DNA of 44,140 nt, from NCBI GenBank assembly GCA_029932195.1, contig JAOZQN010000001.1, positions 10,595 to 54,734 on the forward strand, written 5' to 3'. The stretch's first letter is position 1. Every line of letters begins with the position of its first letter. Under the pieces are notes generated by a model that saw only the letters and a program-made list of their open reading frames with translations, ran no database searches and was not told the origin of the DNA. Below are positions 32,082 to 40,929 of the stretch, piece after piece. The position numbers and the translations under genes are program-made. This DNA is from Bacteroidales bacterium. Its GTDB lineage: Bacteria; Bacteroidota; Bacteroidia; Bacteroidales; JAOZQN01.

Positions 32082-34742
32082 TTGAAAAATAAAATGACCG
32101 ACGAACAAATTTTAAAGAAATTAGAAAAACAATTAAATATTAAATTTGAAAAAGTTAATAAGATAAATCTTTTTGATAAAAAACCATGTTTTGAAATTAA
32201 TAATGGTAATATTACAGGTCTTCTTATCAGAAATGTAATTATTGAAGATTTAAGTTTGATAAGTAAATTGGTTAATTTAGAAGAACTTTATTTGTCAGAT
32301 AATCAAATAAAAAACATTTCAGATTTAAAAATTTTAAAAAATATTTCAGAACTTGATTTGTCAAATAATCAAATAAAAGATATTTCTATTTTACAAAAAT
32401 TGGAAAAAATTACATTACTTGATTTGTCAAATAATCAAATAAAAGATATTTCTTTTTTAGAAAATTTAAAAAAGATCGAAGTTCTTTTTTTATCAGATAA
32501 TCAAATAAAAGATATTTCGGTTTTGCAAAATTTGAAAAATCTTATGGTATTTTATTTGTCAGATAATCAAATAAAAAACATTTCAGATTTAAAAATTTTA
32601 AAAAATATTTCAGAACTTGATTTGTCAAATAATCAAATAAAAGATATTTCTTTTTTACAAAATTTAAAAAACATTAAACTTCTTGATTTATATAGTAATC
32701 AAATAAAAGATATATCAGTATTAAAAAATTTATTAAAAAAAGAAAATTCTTTTGATAAAGATTTTTTTGATTTTAATTTTAATTTAAAAAACAATCCCTT
32801 AAAAACGCCTCCTAAAGAACTTGCTGAACTTGGCAGAGATGCTATAAACGAATATTTTGAACATATAGAACTTGGTTACACCGTTTTGAAAGAGGCAAAA
32901 TTAATAATAATTGGCGAAGCTGGTGCTGGCAAAACTACTTTTGCCAAAAAACTTATAAACGCTAATGCCAAAATGCCAGAACAAAACGAAACTACACTCG
33001 GCATAGATGTTTATAATTGGCAATTTGAAACAAATTTGAATAATACAGAAAGTCCAAAATTCAATGCTAAATTGTGGGACTTCGGTGGGCAAGATATTTA
33101 TCATGGCACGCATCAGTTCTTTTTTAGTCAAAAATCGCTTTACATTTTAATTTCTGATGCTCGAGACCAAAGAACAGATTTTAATTATTGGCTAAATACG
33201 GTGGAACAATTAACGGGAGAGAATAGTATTCTTCTGGTTTTGTTTAACAAAAGAGAAGGACGAAATTGGAAATTAGAAGATGAATACGGATTAAATAGAC
33301 GTTTTGAAGGAATGATAAAAAAAGTTATTTCAATAGATTTATCAAATATAGATGAAATACCGCATTTGCAACAGCAAATACAAAAAGAAATAACAAATTT
33401 GCCACAAATAGATTATCGCTTACCAACAACTTGGGTAAATATTCGCAAAGAACTTAGCAAGCTGACAGACAGATATATTAGCTACGAAAAATTTAGAGAT
33501 ATTTGTAATCAAAATAATATAACAAATCCCAAAGTTATAGAAATTATTAGCAAATTATTTACAAATATAGGCGTTTTTACTCATTTTATAGAAGAAGAAA
33601 CAAATTTGCAAGATATAATATTTCTTGATTCTAATTGGCTTACAAAAACAGTTTATTCATTGTTAGACAATCAGATAGTAATAGAAAATAAAGGAAAAAT
33701 TACACGCACAGAAGTAAATCAAATATTAAAAACAGAAGAATTATATTTTGATGTAGATAAATTTATAGAACTATTAAAAAAATTTAGTTTAATATATAAA
33801 ATAAATGGTAGTCAAAATTATATTGTTCCATACCATTTGAAAGCCGGGCAGCCTTACAAAAAATGGAAATATATAGATGACAAAAATGTTTATATTTTTC
33901 GTTATTTATTTGATAATTATATGCCAAAAGGAATTATGGTAAAACTTATTGTTGCTTTGCATCAATATATTTACGACCACGAACTTGTGTGGGCAAGAGG
34001 TGTAAATATCTCTAATTCAGTGAATAAACCCGATACTTTTGCGGAAATTATAGAAACTTATGGACGAGAAAATCGTTTTGATATAAGAATTTATGGTAAA
34101 AATCAAAAAGACCTTTTGCAAATAATAATTTATCATTTCGATAAAATATTAAAACCATTCACAAAACTAACTCACGAAAAAGAAGTGCCATGCAATTGTG
34201 AGACTTGCATTACAAGTGATAATCCACATTTTTTTAAATATAAGTCTTTGTTAAAACGAAAAGAAAAAGGAAAAACTACAATTGAATGTGATAAAAGTTT
34301 TGAAGATACTAATATAAAAGAATTGCTTGAAGGAATTGATTTTTCGGAACTGCGAAGTTTATTAATAAATAAAAAATTTGAGGAATTTAAACAACAAATA
34401 TCTCAACGCTTTTCCGATATTTCGTATCAAATACATAAAAAGACTGTTTCGGAAAGTTTTTTTCATAGCAATTTTCATACTATTTTAGCAGAGAATGGTT
34501 TAAAACCAATTTCAGAAGAAAGCACAAACGACGGCAGAATAGATTTACACCTTTCTATTGATAAAACAAAATATTTGTTTGAACTAAAATTAAAAGAAAG
34601 CAAAGATGACGGTATGAAACAAATTCATGAAAAAAAATATTATAACAAATTTTTGGGACAGTTCGATAAAATAATCTTAATAGCTATTAGTTTTAGCACA
34701 AAAACACGAAATATAGATAAAATAGAATATGAAATTTTATAA
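32082..34742 (+). CDS. Roco-family protein: LRR - Roc GTPase - COR - C-terminal PD-(D/E)XK nuclease
   Basis: About 8 LRRs of 22 aa ('LxxLDLSNNQIKDISFLQNLKN'); P-loop 'LIIIGEAGAGKTTFAKKL', 'LWDFGGQDIYHGTHQFFF', 'LLVLFNKREGR'; C-terminal 'ESFFHSNFHTILAENGLKPISEESTNDGRIDLHLSIDKTKYLFELKLKESK' (D..ExK). Confidence 0.9.
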   Translation: MKNKMTDEQILKKLEKQLNIKFEKVNKINLFDKKPCFEINNGNITGLLIRNVIIEDLSLISKLVNLEELYLSDNQIKNISDLKILKNISELDLSNNQIKDISILQKLEKITLLDLSNNQIKDISFLENLKKIEVLFLSDNQIKDISVLQNLKNLMVFYLSDNQIKNISDLKILKNISELDLSNNQIKDISFLQNLKNIKLLDLYSNQIKDISVLKNLLKKENSFDKDFFDFNFNLKNNPLKTPPKELAELGRDAINEYFEHIELGYTVLKEAKLIIIGEAGAGKTTFAKKLINANAKMPEQNETTLGIDVYNWQFETNLNNTESPKFNAKLWDFGGQDIYHGTHQFFFSQKSLYILISDARDQRTDFNYWLNTVEQLTGENSILLVLFNKREGRNWKLEDEYGLNRRFEGMIKKVISIDLSNIDEIPHLQQQIQKEITNLPQIDYRLPTTWVNIRKELSKLTDRYISYEKFRDICNQNNITNPKVIEIISKLFTNIGVFTHFIEEETNLQDIIFLDSNWLTKTVYSLLDNQIVIENKGKITRTEVNQILKTEELYFDVDKFIELLKKFSLIYKINGSQNYIVPYHLKAGQPYKKWKYIDDKNVYIFRYLFDNYMPKGIMVKLIVALHQYIYDHELVWARGVNISNSVNKPDTFAEIIETYGRENRFDIRIYGKNQKDLLQIIIYHFDKILKPFTKLTHEKEVPCNCETCITSDNPHFFKYKSLLKRKEKGKTTIECDKSFEDTNIKELLEGIDFSELRSLLINKKFEEFKQQISQRFSDISYQIHKKTVSESFFHSNFHTILAENGLKPISEESTNDGRIDLHLSIDKTKYLFELKLKESKDDGMKQIHEKKYYNKFLGQFDKIILIAISFSTKTRNIDKIEYEIL
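32287..32651 (+). repeat. Pair of exact 101-bp direct repeats (32287-32387 and 32551-32651) inside the LRR region
   Basis: TTTATTTGTCAGATAATCAAATAAAAAACATTTCAG...AATAAAAGATATTTCT occurs twice, 264 nt apart (4 x 66 nt = 4 LRRs). Confidence 0.92.
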
Positions 34743-37141: not shown

Positions 37142-39709
37142 ATGGAATTTATATCAGGAGCAAAATATATTAGAGCAGATTTTCATTTACACACAAAATC
37201 AGATACTGAATTTAATTATAAAAGTGAAGAAAATGATTTTGTAAAAAACTATGTTCAAAAATTAATAGAGGAAAATATTCAACTTGCGGTTATTACAAAT
37301 CACAATAAATTTGATTTAAAACAATACGATGGCTTAAGAAAAAAAGCAAAGAAAAAAGGCATTTTTCTTTTACCTGGAATTGAATTAAATATAAACGAAG
37401 GAAAAACAGGTTTACATACACTGATTGTGTTTGACAATAAAAAGTGGTTAGTTGGCAACGAGGATTTTATAAATGATTTTATTACAAAAACAGCTCCAAC
37501 AGATAATCATGATTTTAAATATAAAAACGGACTTTCTCAACATAGTTTAATTCAAACTATTGAACTTCTAAATACATTTAAAAAAAAATATTTTATTGTA
37601 TTAGCACATGTTTCGTCTGATAATGGATTATTAAAAGAAGTGAATGGGAAAAAAATTGAACAGCTTGGAAAAGATCCTATTTTCAGGAAAAATGTTCTTG
37701 GATTTCAGGCAGTTAAAAATGGAGATTTTGATAATTTAAAACTATGGCTTAAAAAAAAGCTTCCTGCTTTTGTTGAAGGTTCTGACCCTAAAAGTATTGA
37801 ACAAATAGGAAAAGGAAAGAAATGCTACCTAAAATTAAGCGATTTGAATTTTGATGCTGTTAAATTTGCTTTGCAATATCACGAGAGTAGAGTTGTCCGA
37901 GAAATTCCAAAACAACAAAACGCTTATATTAAATCGGTTGAGTATGTTGGAGGCAAACTTGATGGTAAAATAATCCACCTAAGTCCATCAATGAATAATA
38001 TTATTGGGATACGAGGAAGTGGAAAATCATCAATTTTGGAAACTATACGGTATGCTTTGAATATTAACTTAGATAAGAAAATTACTGCAGACGAGAATTA
38101 TAAAAATTCAATTATAAATAAAACTCTTGGAGGAGGTGGCAAAATTTTACTTAAAATACAAAATAATAATAATATTTATAATATTGAAAAAGGAACAACT
38201 GGAATAGCAAGATGCATTGAAAAACCCGACTTAAATATAAAATCATTAATAAAAAGTTTTTATTTTGGACAAAAAGACTTATCAAGAATAGGTGAGACAA
38301 AACAAAGTAATAAAGAATTTATATATCGTATAATTGGGAAAATTGATAATGATCAAAAACTAAAATCTGATGAGATTTCAAATAAAATAAGAGCGTTATT
38401 ATCAAAAATTATTCAAATTGAAAAAAAGATAGAAATAATACCAGATATAAAAACTCAAATTGCTGATTTAAAACAAGATATTGAAAATATAGAAAAATTT
38501 GGACTTAAAGAAAAATTAGAAAAAGAAATAAATTTTAGTCAAGATATAAATAAAATAAAATATATAAAAAAAGAAATTAAAATAACAATTAATAATTTTG
38601 AAGAGTTCTTAGATAATCAAAATGAAGATTATAATTATTTAAAAGCCTATAAATCAAAAGAAAATAAACCTTTTTTTAACGAAATTTTCACAATACTTGA
38701 TAATATTTCTATTATTCAAAATTCATTTAAAGAAAAAAAGTTAGAAATAGAAAATAAATTTTCAAAAGTAGAAAGTATAGAAAATAAATTATTGGAATTA
38801 ATCGAAAAACTAAACGAGGTATTTGCAAAAAGTCAAAGAGAAAGTAGTATTTCTGCAGAAGATATTAAAAATTATCAAGAATTTCAGACTAAATTGTCTA
38901 ATAAAAAACTTCTCCTAACAGAATTGGAAAAACTAATTCCTAAAAAAAAGTTATTAAGAAAAGAATTAAAGACAAAACTAAACGAGGTTAAAGAAAGCTG
39001 GCAAGAAGAATTTAATATTATAAAATCAAAAATAGATACAGTAAATTCAAAACAAAAAAAACTAAAAATAATTATTAAATTTAAACAAAATAAAAGAGCA
39101 ATAGAAGATTTTATTTTTAATTTTTCACATAATATAAGGAGAGAAAATATAAAAATGTTGATAAAAAACAATAATGATTTAATTGATTTATTTGAAAAAT
39201 TTGAAAATAAATCTGATTTAAAAATCAATCAAATTGATGATATAAAAAATCAATTTTATAAAAACTTACCTAATTTCCTTACTTTCCGAGTTCCAGATAC
39301 TTTTGAAATAGAATACAATAGAAAACCTTTAAAAAATCATTCTCTTGGGCAACGAGCATCTGCATTAATTGTTTTTTTATTTTCGTTACGTAACAACGAT
39401 TTAATTTTAATTGACCAACCAGAAGATGACTTAGACAGTCAAACTGTTTATAATGAAGTAATTACATTAATTAAAAACATGAAAAGCTCAACACAATTTA
39501 TTTTTGCGACACACAACCCTAATATTCCTGTATTGGGCGATTGTGAGCAAGTTTTAGCTTGCGATTATGACAATAAAAACGAAAAAATTAATATTAATTC
39601 AGGTGGTATTGATAAAAAAATAATACAACAAAAAATTATAAATATCATGGAAGGTGGTGAACAAGCTTTTGATGAACGAAAAAATAAATACACACAATGG
39701 AATCATTAG
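37142..39709 (+). CDS. PHP-domain phosphoesterase fused to SMC/ABC-type ATPase (TrlF/Ppl-like)
   Basis: PHP: 'ADFHLHTKSD', 'AVITNHN', 'LLPGIELN', 'VLAHVS', 'FVEGSDPKS'. ATPase: Walker A 'GIRGSGKSSILETIRYAL', long coiled coil, signature 'HSLGQRASALIVFL', Walker B 'DLILIDQPEDDLD', H-loop 'FIFATHNPNIPVLGD'. Confidence 0.9.
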   Translation: MEFISGAKYIRADFHLHTKSDTEFNYKSEENDFVKNYVQKLIEENIQLAVITNHNKFDLKQYDGLRKKAKKKGIFLLPGIELNINEGKTGLHTLIVFDNKKWLVGNEDFINDFITKTAPTDNHDFKYKNGLSQHSLIQTIELLNTFKKKYFIVLAHVSSDNGLLKEVNGKKIEQLGKDPIFRKNVLGFQAVKNGDFDNLKLWLKKKLPAFVEGSDPKSIEQIGKGKKCYLKLSDLNFDAVKFALQYHESRVVREIPKQQNAYIKSVEYVGGKLDGKIIHLSPSMNNIIGIRGSGKSSILETIRYALNINLDKKITADENYKNSIINKTLGGGGKILLKIQNNNNIYNIEKGTTGIARCIEKPDLNIKSLIKSFYFGQKDLSRIGETKQSNKEFIYRIIGKIDNDQKLKSDEISNKIRALLSKIIQIEKKIEIIPDIKTQIADLKQDIENIEKFGLKEKLEKEINFSQDINKIKYIKKEIKITINNFEEFLDNQNEDYNYLKAYKSKENKPFFNEIFTILDNISIIQNSFKEKKLEIENKFSKVESIENKLLELIEKLNEVFAKSQRESSISAEDIKNYQEFQTKLSNKKLLLTELEKLIPKKKLLRKELKTKLNEVKESWQEEFNIIKSKIDTVNSKQKKLKIIIKFKQNKRAIEDFIFNFSHNIRRENIKMLIKNNNDLIDLFEKFENKSDLKINQIDDIKNQFYKNLPNFLTFRVPDTFEIEYNRKPLKNHSLGQRASALIVFLFSLRNNDLILIDQPEDDLDSQTVYNEVITLIKNMKSSTQFIFATHNPNIPVLGDCEQVLACDYDNKNEKININSGGIDKKIIQQKIINIMEGGEQAFDERKNKYTQWNH

Positions 39710-40929
39710 AATTATTAGAAATAATACAAAAAGGTGAAAATAGTTATGTTCAATTTAAAAGAAGAGTAAAAGATGCTCATTCTATTTCTCAAGAAATGTC
39801 GGCATTTGCAAATTACAAAGGAGGAACAATTATTATTGGAGTGGAGGATAAAACAGGAGAATTAAATGGTTTGACTTTTGCCGAAATAAATGAAAATAAT
39901 AAAACTCTGTCAAATGCGGCAAGTGATAATGTAAAACCAAGTTTATTTATTCATACAGAACAAGTTACAATAAATAATCATACACTTATTGTTGCAAAAA
40001 TACCAGAAGGAATAAATAAACCTTACAAAGACAAAAAAGGAGCTATTTGGTTAAAAAATGGCTCAGACAAAAGACGAGTTACTTCTAATGAGGAACTTGC
40101 AAGATTATTACAAGACAGTAAAAATATTTATGCCGATGAGCAAATAATTATAAATTCTTCTATAAATGATATAGACTATCATAATGTAAAATATTTTATT
40201 TTACAATCTAACCGAAATGATTTTGAAGATATTATAAATAAAATTGAAACTGAAATAACTCCATACAGTTTAAAAAAACACGAACTTGACAATTTTTTAG
40301 AACGAATAAAATTTAATCAACCAATTGTAAAATTGCTTAATAATTTACGAATTTTAGCAAATAATGAATTTACTTTAGCCGGTTTATTATTATTTTCGGA
40401 TAAAACACAATACTATCGTCCTATGTTTACCATAGATTGTGTTACTTTTCCTGAAAATACAACATCTGTAAATACATATTCCGATACAGAAAATCTCACT
40501 GGAAATTATTATGATATTTTTGAAGCAACAATGAATTTTGTAAAAAGAAACCTCAAAAAAATCCCTTCAAATAAAGGTTTTAATAGTAATGCAAAAACTG
40601 AAATTCCCCTTGAAGTATTTGAAGAACTTATTATTAATGCCCTTATTCATCGAAATTATTTTATCAATTCAACAATTAAAATTTTCATATTTCCAAATAG
40701 AATAGAAATAATAAGTCCAGGAGTTTTGCCAAATTCTTTAACTATAGAAAATATTTTAAGTGGCATTGCAATACAAAGAAATCCTAATTTACATTCATTA
40801 GCAAAATATATACTACCATACAAAGGATATGGAAGTGGTATTAAAAGAGCTATAAATTTATATCCCGAGATTGAATTTGAAAATAATTTATCAAAAGAAC
40901 AATTTGTTGCAACAATAAAGCGAAGATAA
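39697..40929 (+). CDS. AlbA_2/Schlafen-like DNA/RNA-binding protein with HATPase_c_4-type C-terminus
   Basis: 'GENSYVQFKRRVKDAHSISQEMSAFANYKGGTIIIGVEDKTGELNGLTF'; 'IPEGINKPYKDKKGAIWLKNGSDKRRVTSNEELARLLQ'; 'PLEVFEELIINALIHRNYFINSTIKIFIFPNRIEIISPGVLPN'. Overlaps the upstream ORF by 13 nt. Confidence 0.9.
   Translation: MESLELLEIIQKGENSYVQFKRRVKDAHSISQEMSAFANYKGGTIIIGVEDKTGELNGLTFAEINENNKTLSNAASDNVKPSLFIHTEQVTINNHTLIVAKIPEGINKPYKDKKGAIWLKNGSDKRRVTSNEELARLLQDSKNIYADEQIIINSSINDIDYHNVKYFILQSNRNDFEDIINKIETEITPYSLKKHELDNFLERIKFNQPIVKLLNNLRILANNEFTLAGLLLFSDKTQYYRPMFTIDCVTFPENTTSVNTYSDTENLTGNYYDIFEATMNFVKRNLKKIPSNKGFNSNAKTEIPLEVFEELIINALIHRNYFINSTIKIFIFPNRIEIISPGVLPNSLTIENILSGIAIQRNPNLHSLAKYILPYKGYGSGIKRAINLYPEIEFENNLSKEQFVATIKRR

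What the first reader, a model, noticed from the sequence alone, without database searches (positions are those of the whole stretch)
37142..40929. Candidate two-gene conflict/defence cassette: PHP-SMC ATPase overlapping an AlbA_2/Schlafen-like ATPase
The first ORF joins a PHP metal-phosphoesterase domain (HxH, NHN, GIE, AHV, GSD motifs) to a Rad50/SMC-like ATPase with all ABC motifs. This layout resembles the TrlF/Ppl ('polymerase/histidinol phosphatase-like') proteins reported as antiphage genes. The second ORF starts inside the last codons of the first (ACACAATGGAATCATTAG, 13-nt overlap), implying translational coupling. It carries an AlbA_2-type nucleic-acid-binding domain plus an HATPase_c_4-like end. 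I do not know of a described system with this exact pairing. Domains and overlap are seen in sequence; antiviral function is inference.
Basis: partly seen in the sequence, partly recalled or inferred. Interest (0 to 1): 0.85.

Follow-up and report, generated by a model that had tools for sequence, protein, structure and literature searches.

The report
TRL-type gene pair, probable restriction backup
Two overlapping genes here form a widespread, already described bacterial growth-arrest pair (trlF–trlG), and across many bacteria the same pair sits inside operons that cut foreign DNA, which suggests, though I know of no phage test, that it is a backup antiviral alarm.

Summary
ORF1 (37142-39709, 855 aa) and ORF2 (39697-40929, 410 aa) overlap by 13 nt. 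ORF1 is a TrlF-family PHP–SMC/ABC ATPase (NCBIfam NF045780, 495 bits, cut-off 350). ORF2 is SLFN_AlbA_2 plus HATPase_c_4. The pairing is not new: it matches trlF–trlG of the Temperature Restricting Locus (TRL) of Photorhabdus (Hapeshi 2020, PMC7554251), where trlG causes growth arrest.

In a scan of 84,980 species, TrlG follows TrlF in nearly all of the 80 nearest loci, usually overlapping by 13-31 nt. TrlF and TrlG distances correlate (r=0.95). In 18 of 30 loci with enough flank, the pair sits among restriction genes: between HsdR and HsdS (often with PrrC), Mod and Res, PglXI and BrxHII, or beside type IIG enzymes. I found no paper describing this.

Most likely it is a portable growth-arrest module that backs up restriction: TrlF senses, TrlG acts. 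Phage protection is untested. TrlG has Gln where Schlafen nucleases need the second catalytic Glu, so a plain Schlafen-type RNase is doubtful. The window copy is a stand-alone, low-GC island without trlR or restriction genes.

The parts
37142..39709 (+). trlF: TrlF-family PHP-SMC/ABC ATPase, 855 aa
   Evidence: (NF045780 495 bits, cut-off 350).
37163..37876 (+). PHP metal-phosphoesterase domain (about residues 8-245), ligands H15 H17 D21 H54 E81 H92 H156 D215
   Evidence: Pfam PF02811 weak hit; residues invariant in 41 sequences.
38006..38029 (+). Walker A GIRGSGKS (residues 289-296)
   Evidence: Sequence; G/K/S positions invariant in 41 sequences.
38348..39049 (+). coiled-coil/helical arm of the SMC-like ATPase (residues 403-636)
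   Evidence: AlphaFold2 model, mean pLDDT 82.
39299..39541 (+). C-terminal ABC half: signature SLGQ, Walker B LILIDQPEDDLD, H-loop THN (residues 720-800)
   Evidence: Invariant columns; Foldseek to SMC, Rad50, JetC, AriA.
39697..39709 (+). 13-nt overlap of trlF end and trlG start
   Evidence: the same -13 overlap in 22 of 70 relatives, and some overlap in 67.
39697..40929 (+). trlG: AlbA_2/Schlafen-fold plus GHKL-type HATPase_c_4 protein, 410 aa
   Evidence: (model pLDDT 88.6).
39736..40080 (+). SLFN_AlbA_2 domain (residues 14-128)
   Evidence: PF04326 84.9 bits; Foldseek to SLFN14, SLFN13, SLFN11 and SAMD9 tRNase domain.
39751..39753 (+). codon for Gln19, at the position of the second catalytic Glu of Schlafen nucleases (SLFN14 E211)
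   Evidence: Alignment with SLFN14; Q in 39 of 39 TRL-clade TrlG.
40669..40869 (+). HATPase_c_4 (GHKL-like) domain (residues 325-391)
   Evidence: PF13749 46.8 bits; Foldseek to histidine-kinase CA domains.

Best explanation
The two genes are a TRL-type trlF-trlG pair: a mobile two-protein module that stops the growth of its own cell and in many lineages backs up a DNA-modification-based restriction system. Proposed working: TrlF, an SMC/Rad50-like ATPase with a PHP phosphoesterase domain, senses trouble (DNA ends, a stalled restriction enzyme, or a phage anti-restriction protein) and controls TrlG. TrlG, a Schlafen-fold nucleic-acid-binding protein with a GHKL ATPase domain, is the arm that arrests growth, so an infected cell stops before the phage multiplies. 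Shown here or in print: gene anatomy, recurrent coupling and correlated divergence of the two genes, embedding in type I, IIG, III and BREX loci, and TrlG-dependent growth arrest in Photorhabdus. Inferred: antiviral purpose, the trigger, the direction of control between TrlF and TrlG, and TrlG's chemistry. The window copy is a stand-alone one, probably acquired horizontally.
For: TrlF membership; both proteins are homologous to the pYR3 copies that the TRL paper names as syntenic. Pairing in nearly all of the 80 best loci, overlapping; mirror-tree r=0.95, highest of 1000 permutations 0.31. Restriction context in 18 of 30 loci with adequate flank; restriction/BREX genes are 83 of 407 genes within 5 kb against 13 of 376 beyond; families identified as HsdR/S/M, Mod, Res, PglXI, BrxHII, PglZ, BrxA, BrxC, MmeI-like type IIG and PrrC. 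The whole HsdR-TrlF-TrlG-HsdS-AAA-HsdM cassette, its AAA gene in the position of the PrrC-family gene of relatives, is Tn7-like cargo in E. coli and on IncC plasmid pNDM-KN; the trlFG part is in 38 of 5,426 E. coli genomes. In Photorhabdus, 16 distinct growth-arrest suppressor alleles fall in trlG, none in trlF; mapped columns are more conserved than average (0.84 against 0.68, p=0.007). Four TRL loci keep TrlF but have TrlG deleted or decayed, as for a costly effector. Foldseek places TrlF near AriA of PARIS, JetC and the retron-IA ATPase. The pair is among the lowest-GC genes of the window (0.240, 0.257) and a congener has different genes after the same flanking gene.
Against: No phage test known. 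The window copy has no restriction genes or trlR beside it. 12 of 30 well-flanked loci show no recognised restriction genes. The only tested phenotype was read as temperature restriction, not defence. TrlF and TrlG also occur apart: TrlF alone on V. tubiashii and Sulfitobacter plasmids, TrlG-like proteins without TrlF, some beside type I S and R genes, and an intact TrlG beside a frameshifted TrlF in P. syringae PP4, which argues against TrlF being a strict antitoxin. The decay asymmetry comes from a TrlF-anchored search. Gln19 argues against a classical Schlafen nuclease.
Confidence: 0.6

Rival explanations
1. The PHP domain of TrlF is the effector (a nuclease or nucleotide phosphoesterase) and TrlG is its nucleic-acid-sensing regulator.
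For: Eight PHP ligands invariant in 41 TrlF; TrlG lacks the second Schlafen Glu; distant TrlF proteins occur without TrlG, and a few TRL-clade ones do too.
Against: In Photorhabdus all 16 distinct suppressor alleles hit trlG and none trlF although trlF is about 2.3 times longer; (382/1257)^16 is about 5e-9 under equal mutability (lengths). TrlG is lost while TrlF stays in several loci.
Confidence: 0.2
2. TrlG is mainly a regulator (such proteins are often annotated as transcriptional regulators) of restriction or neighbouring genes, and TrlF a DNA-repair type ATPase; the pair is not a suicide module.
For: Plasmid records annotate TrlG as 'transcriptional regulator' or DNA/RNA-binding protein; TrlG relatives have C-terminal winged-helix-like extensions and sit beside type I S and R genes; altered nuclease triad.
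Against: Recessive trlG mutations relieve growth arrest; TrlFG occurs in four unrelated kinds of restriction locus and alone, so no common regulated target is obvious; embedding next to PrrC, a known suicide nuclease.
Confidence: 0.15
3. A temperature or stress growth-arrest module, as the TRL paper proposes, with no antiviral role.
For: The only experimental phenotype: induction on shift to 36 C and growth arrest.
Against: Repeated embedding in R-M/BREX operons, Tn7-like cargo and plasmids; patchy distribution (36 of 396 phylum genomes over cut-off for the wider TrlF family; 38 of 5,426 E. coli).
Confidence: 0.1

Closest known systems
Temperature Restricting Locus (TRL), trlR-trlF-trlG, Photorhabdus laumondii (PMC7554251)
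   Same: Same two proteins in the same order; AlbA_2 14-128 plus HATPase_c_4 in TrlG; the TrlF of its pYR3 homologue is 34.9% identical to the window TrlF over its length.
   Different: Window lacks trlR; no temperature phenotype is known for this organism; the paper does not propose defence and mentions R-M genes only once (small HsdM pieces on pYR3).
Ppl (antiphage PHP-SMC protein; PADLOC Ppl, NCBIfam NF042955)
   Same: PHP domain fused to an SMC/AAA ATPase.
   Different: Scores 161 bits against a cut-off of 1000; this family is instead paired with TrlG.
PARIS (AriA-AriB)
   Same: Works-like: SMC/Rad50/OLD-type ATPase plus a separate effector, linked to restriction; AriA is a Foldseek match of TrlF.
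   Different: No TOPRIM AriB; partner is AlbA_2-GHKL; extra PHP domain.
PrrC and RloC anticodon nucleases in type I R-M loci
   Same: PrrC is a guest gene within an hsd operon acting as second-line suicide effector (PMC3710099); a PrrC-family gene lies in the same cassettes as TrlFG.
   Different: No HEPN nuclease; different fold and two separate proteins.
Schlafen RNase-minimal histidine kinase-wHTH proteins linked to BREX (PMC12839542)
   Same: AlbA_2/Schlafen plus GHKL domain, proposed backup effectors beside BREX.
   Different: That paper's main text does not mention TrlF or PHP; the window TrlG has no wHTH extension and has E-to-Q in the triad.

Membership tests
TrlF family (NCBIfam NF045780) | score over the curated cut-off of 350 bits along the whole length | tested here: met
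   495.3 bits, residues 6-850.
TRL operon (trlRFG) | trlF followed by trlG on the same strand | tested here: met
   13-nt overlap, both families matched; 90-row clade of almost wholly paired TrlF in the tree.
TRL operon (trlRFG) | TrlG = AlbA_2 plus HATPase_c_4 | tested here: met
   matches the architecture in PMC7554251.
TRL operon (trlRFG) | small HTH regulator trlR upstream | tested here: not met
   Only 60 nt between 37081 and 37142 and a DUF3352/MORN gene before it; a small HTH gene is present in some relatives (L029, L030, L032, L059).
TRL operon (trlRFG) | TrlG-dependent growth arrest on temperature shift | not testable with these tools
   Residues hit by suppressors are partly kept: S16, A36, A74, K80 (R in Photorhabdus), R126, P345, N362, G381; S35, L220 and A358 differ.
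Ppl antiphage protein | score over the NF042955 cut-off of 1000 bits | tested here: not met
   161.5 bits.
Schlafen-type RNase | Schlafen/AlbA_2 fold | tested here: met
   PF04326, Foldseek to SLFN and SAMD9 tRNase structures.
Schlafen-type RNase | E-E-D catalytic triad (SLFN14 E206, E211, D249; from own knowledge, placed with the alignment) | tested here: not met
   E14, Q19, D51 in the window; Q in 39 of 39 (A4), and in 71 of 73 of a wider set, the two E being distant partners.
PARIS | AriB TOPRIM effector | tested here: not met
   Partner is AlbA_2-HATPase; no TOPRIM hit in the two genes.
Antiphage defence system | protection against phage | not testable with these tools
   Only genomic association with restriction loci.

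The most novel reading that the evidence does not exclude
TrlFG is a general-purpose restriction guard: one portable two-protein alarm that plugs into type I, IIG, III R-M and BREX operons and halts the cell when restriction fails. It would use a Schlafen-fold effector with a fixed E-to-Q change and hence unfamiliar chemistry, and would make the Photorhabdus temperature limit an autoimmune side effect.
Probability: 0.35. Interest if true: 0.75.

Novelty: new member of a known kind. Interest (0 to 1): 0.5.

Why it matters
A published growth-arrest locus read as temperature adaptation would become an anti-phage module shared by most kinds of modification-based restriction. That gives a concrete test of how restriction systems are backed up when phages block them, and of what a Schlafen-fold protein does without its canonical nuclease triad.

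Tried and rejected
Literature searches for TrlF with phage, PHP with AlbA_2, and R-M embedded genes found only the TRL paper and the BREX survey as relevant; [quoted passage not shown] A strict toxin–antitoxin reading (TrlF as antitoxin) was weakened by the P. syringae PP4 plasmid with frameshifted TrlF and intact TrlG. A restriction link for the window copy itself was looked for by reading the ORFs of the 54.7-kb contig, not by a family scan of all of them; none was obvious. Linkage with the neighbouring ROCO gene was not supported by any relative seen. An unbiased sample of gammaproteobacterial genomes failed because only G handles are accepted as a centre. PADLOC's 'pAgo' and Argonaute-associated hits of TrlG were treated as shared-domain matches, not evidence of an Argonaute system. 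Promoter-like sites near the genes were no more frequent than in shuffles.
Full report
Check of the observation. Both ORFs are present at the stated coordinates, 37142-39709 and 39697-40929, same strand, overlapping by 13 nt at ACACAATGGAATCATTAG. ORF1 matches PHP weakly, SMC_N and AAA_21 in two halves, and the NCBIfam TrlF family along its whole length at 495 bits against a cut-off of 350. ORF2 matches SLFN_AlbA_2 and HATPase_c_4. In 41 TrlF relatives the PHP ligands H15, H17, D21, H54, E81, H92, H156 and D215 and all ABC motifs are invariant; the usual last His of the PHP site is a Lys in 37 of 41. AlphaFold2 gives confident models (TrlG mean pLDDT 88.6; TrlF 82.2). Foldseek matches TrlG to DIP2311, Schlafen and SAMD9 tRNase domains and, more weakly, histidine-kinase CA domains, and TrlF to SMC, JetC, Rad50, RecF, AriA and a retron-IA ATPase.

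The pairing is already described. The name TrlF comes from the Temperature Restricting Locus of Photorhabdus laumondii, trlR–trlF–trlG (PMC7554251). TrlG there has AlbA_2 at 14-128 and HATPase_c_4 at 298-365; trlF is annotated as a histidinol phosphatase. Recessive mutations in trlG, and deletion of the operon, relieve growth arrest at 36 °C. That paper names a syntenic copy on Yersinia ruckeri pYR3; the pYR3 TrlF is 34.9% identical to the window protein over its length.

How general is the pair? A scan of 84,980 species genomes found 498 relatives of TrlF; in the best 80 loci TrlG follows directly in nearly every one with room, mostly overlapping by 13, 19, 22, 28 or 31 nt. Pairwise distances of TrlF and TrlG correlate at r=0.95 (74 loci; 1000 permutations reach at most 0.31), which includes shared species history as well as co-inheritance. 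In a tree of 116 TrlF the window lies in a 90-row clade in which almost all rows are paired; many more distant members of the TrlF family are unpaired, others are paired with a different AlbA_2 subgroup. That tree is FastTree only and has long branches, so deep branching is not relied on.

Where does it sit? Among 30 loci with at least 3.5 kb upstream and 5 kb downstream, 9 are in type I, 3 in type III, 3 in type IIG and 3 in BREX loci, 12 in none of these. Restriction/BREX genes are 83 of 407 genes within 5 kb and 13 of 376 further out. Typical orders: HsdR–TrlF–TrlG–HsdS–PrrC–HsdM (the small ATPase scores 473 bits to PADLOC PrrC); Mod–TrlF–TrlG–Res; PglXI–TrlF–TrlG–BrxHII–PglZ–BrxA; MmeI-like enzyme–helicase–T5orf172–TrlF–TrlG; or with a small HTH gene. 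The same type I gene order is cargo of a Tn7-like element in E. coli and on pNDM-KN, where the AAA gene in the PrrC position is annotated only as an AAA ATPase; its trlFG part is in 38 of 5,426 complete E. coli genomes. One virus-classified contig carries HsdM–HsdS–PrrC-like–TrlF–TrlG–HsdR (L102). I found no paper that reports this pattern for TrlFG, but a 2026 survey reports Schlafen–histidine-kinase proteins as backup effectors of BREX (PMC12839542) and cites a preprint on antiphage bacterial Schlafens that I could not read.

Which protein acts? From Table 1 of PMC7554251 and its text I count 16 distinct suppressor alleles in trlG (14 substitutions or stops and 2 insertions) and none in trlF. 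With the pYR3 lengths (875 and 382 aa) the chance of that under equal mutability is about (382/1257)^16, or 5e-9; it would be misleading if trlF loss is itself harmful. I mapped the substitutions through pYR3, whose residues match the paper's letters at an offset of 0 (up to residue 36) or -2 (from 75 on), except V35, R80 and R126; the Photorhabdus sequence itself was not held. The mutated columns are more conserved than average (0.84 against 0.68, p=0.007), and the window keeps most of them. TrlG is decayed beside an intact TrlF in L064, L089, L066 and L027, though those loci were fetched by TrlF; the reverse, TrlF frameshifted near codon 160 beside an intact TrlG, occurs in P. syringae PP4. 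TrlG as effector therefore looks more likely than TrlF, with TrlF as sensor or controller rather than strict antitoxin.

A caution on chemistry. The alignment with SLFN14 puts TrlG E14, Q19 and D51 at the Schlafen triad positions (triad from own knowledge). Q19 is fixed in 39 of 39 TRL-clade TrlG, and also in TrlF-less TrlG relatives that sit beside type I S- and R-like genes, whereas more distant TrlF partners have Glu. SLFN14 E211A is the mutant form in some solved structures. So a classical Schlafen RNase is not supported; nucleic-acid binding or a different catalytic arrangement is possible.

The window copy. It has no restriction genes and no trlR beside it; the neighbours are a DUF3352/MORN gene and an M16 peptidase. 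The pair and the ROCO gene upstream are among the lowest-GC genes of the window (0.240, 0.257, 0.248; most others 0.27-0.36). In a congener the DUF3352 gene (78% identical) is followed by different genes, the nucleotide similarity ending at that gene's end (window 37080), and its own TrlFG (60%/67% identical) lies on another, short contig. Horizontal acquisition is the simplest reading.

Verdict. Real, not chance, and a member of a known kind. The antiviral role is well motivated by context but untested; the mechanism proposed (TrlF senses, TrlG arrests, as a backup for restriction) is an inference by analogy with PrrC and PARIS.

Noticed in passing
window 32082-34742 +: A ROCO protein (leucine-rich repeats, Roc, COR-A, COR-B) with a C-terminal PD-(D/E)XK_9 nuclease-like domain, GC 0.248; such an NLR-like layout with a nuclease end could be a conflict or defence gene.
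   Followed up: partly
L153-L159: TrlG relatives of about 460-480 aa with a C-terminal winged-helix-like extension lie beside type I HsdS/HsdR-like genes (by eye) without TrlF, and keep the Gln19 change.
   Followed up: partly
L102 (IMGVR_UViG_3300009430_000108): A virus-classified contig carries a whole type I R-M locus with both PrrC-like and TrlF-TrlG genes.
   Followed up: no
L174 (V. tubiashii p123), L175 (Sulfitobacter p2SUD7): TrlF without TrlG, next to a RecB-like nuclease operon and next to DUF4433 and macro-domain genes respectively; possible alternative partners.
   Followed up: no
PADLOC models PDLC02394 and PDLC02402: 38 of 39 TrlG proteins match a PADLOC 'pAgo' model and 19 an Argonaute-associated one; automatic annotation may mislabel TrlG as Argonaute-linked.
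   Followed up: no
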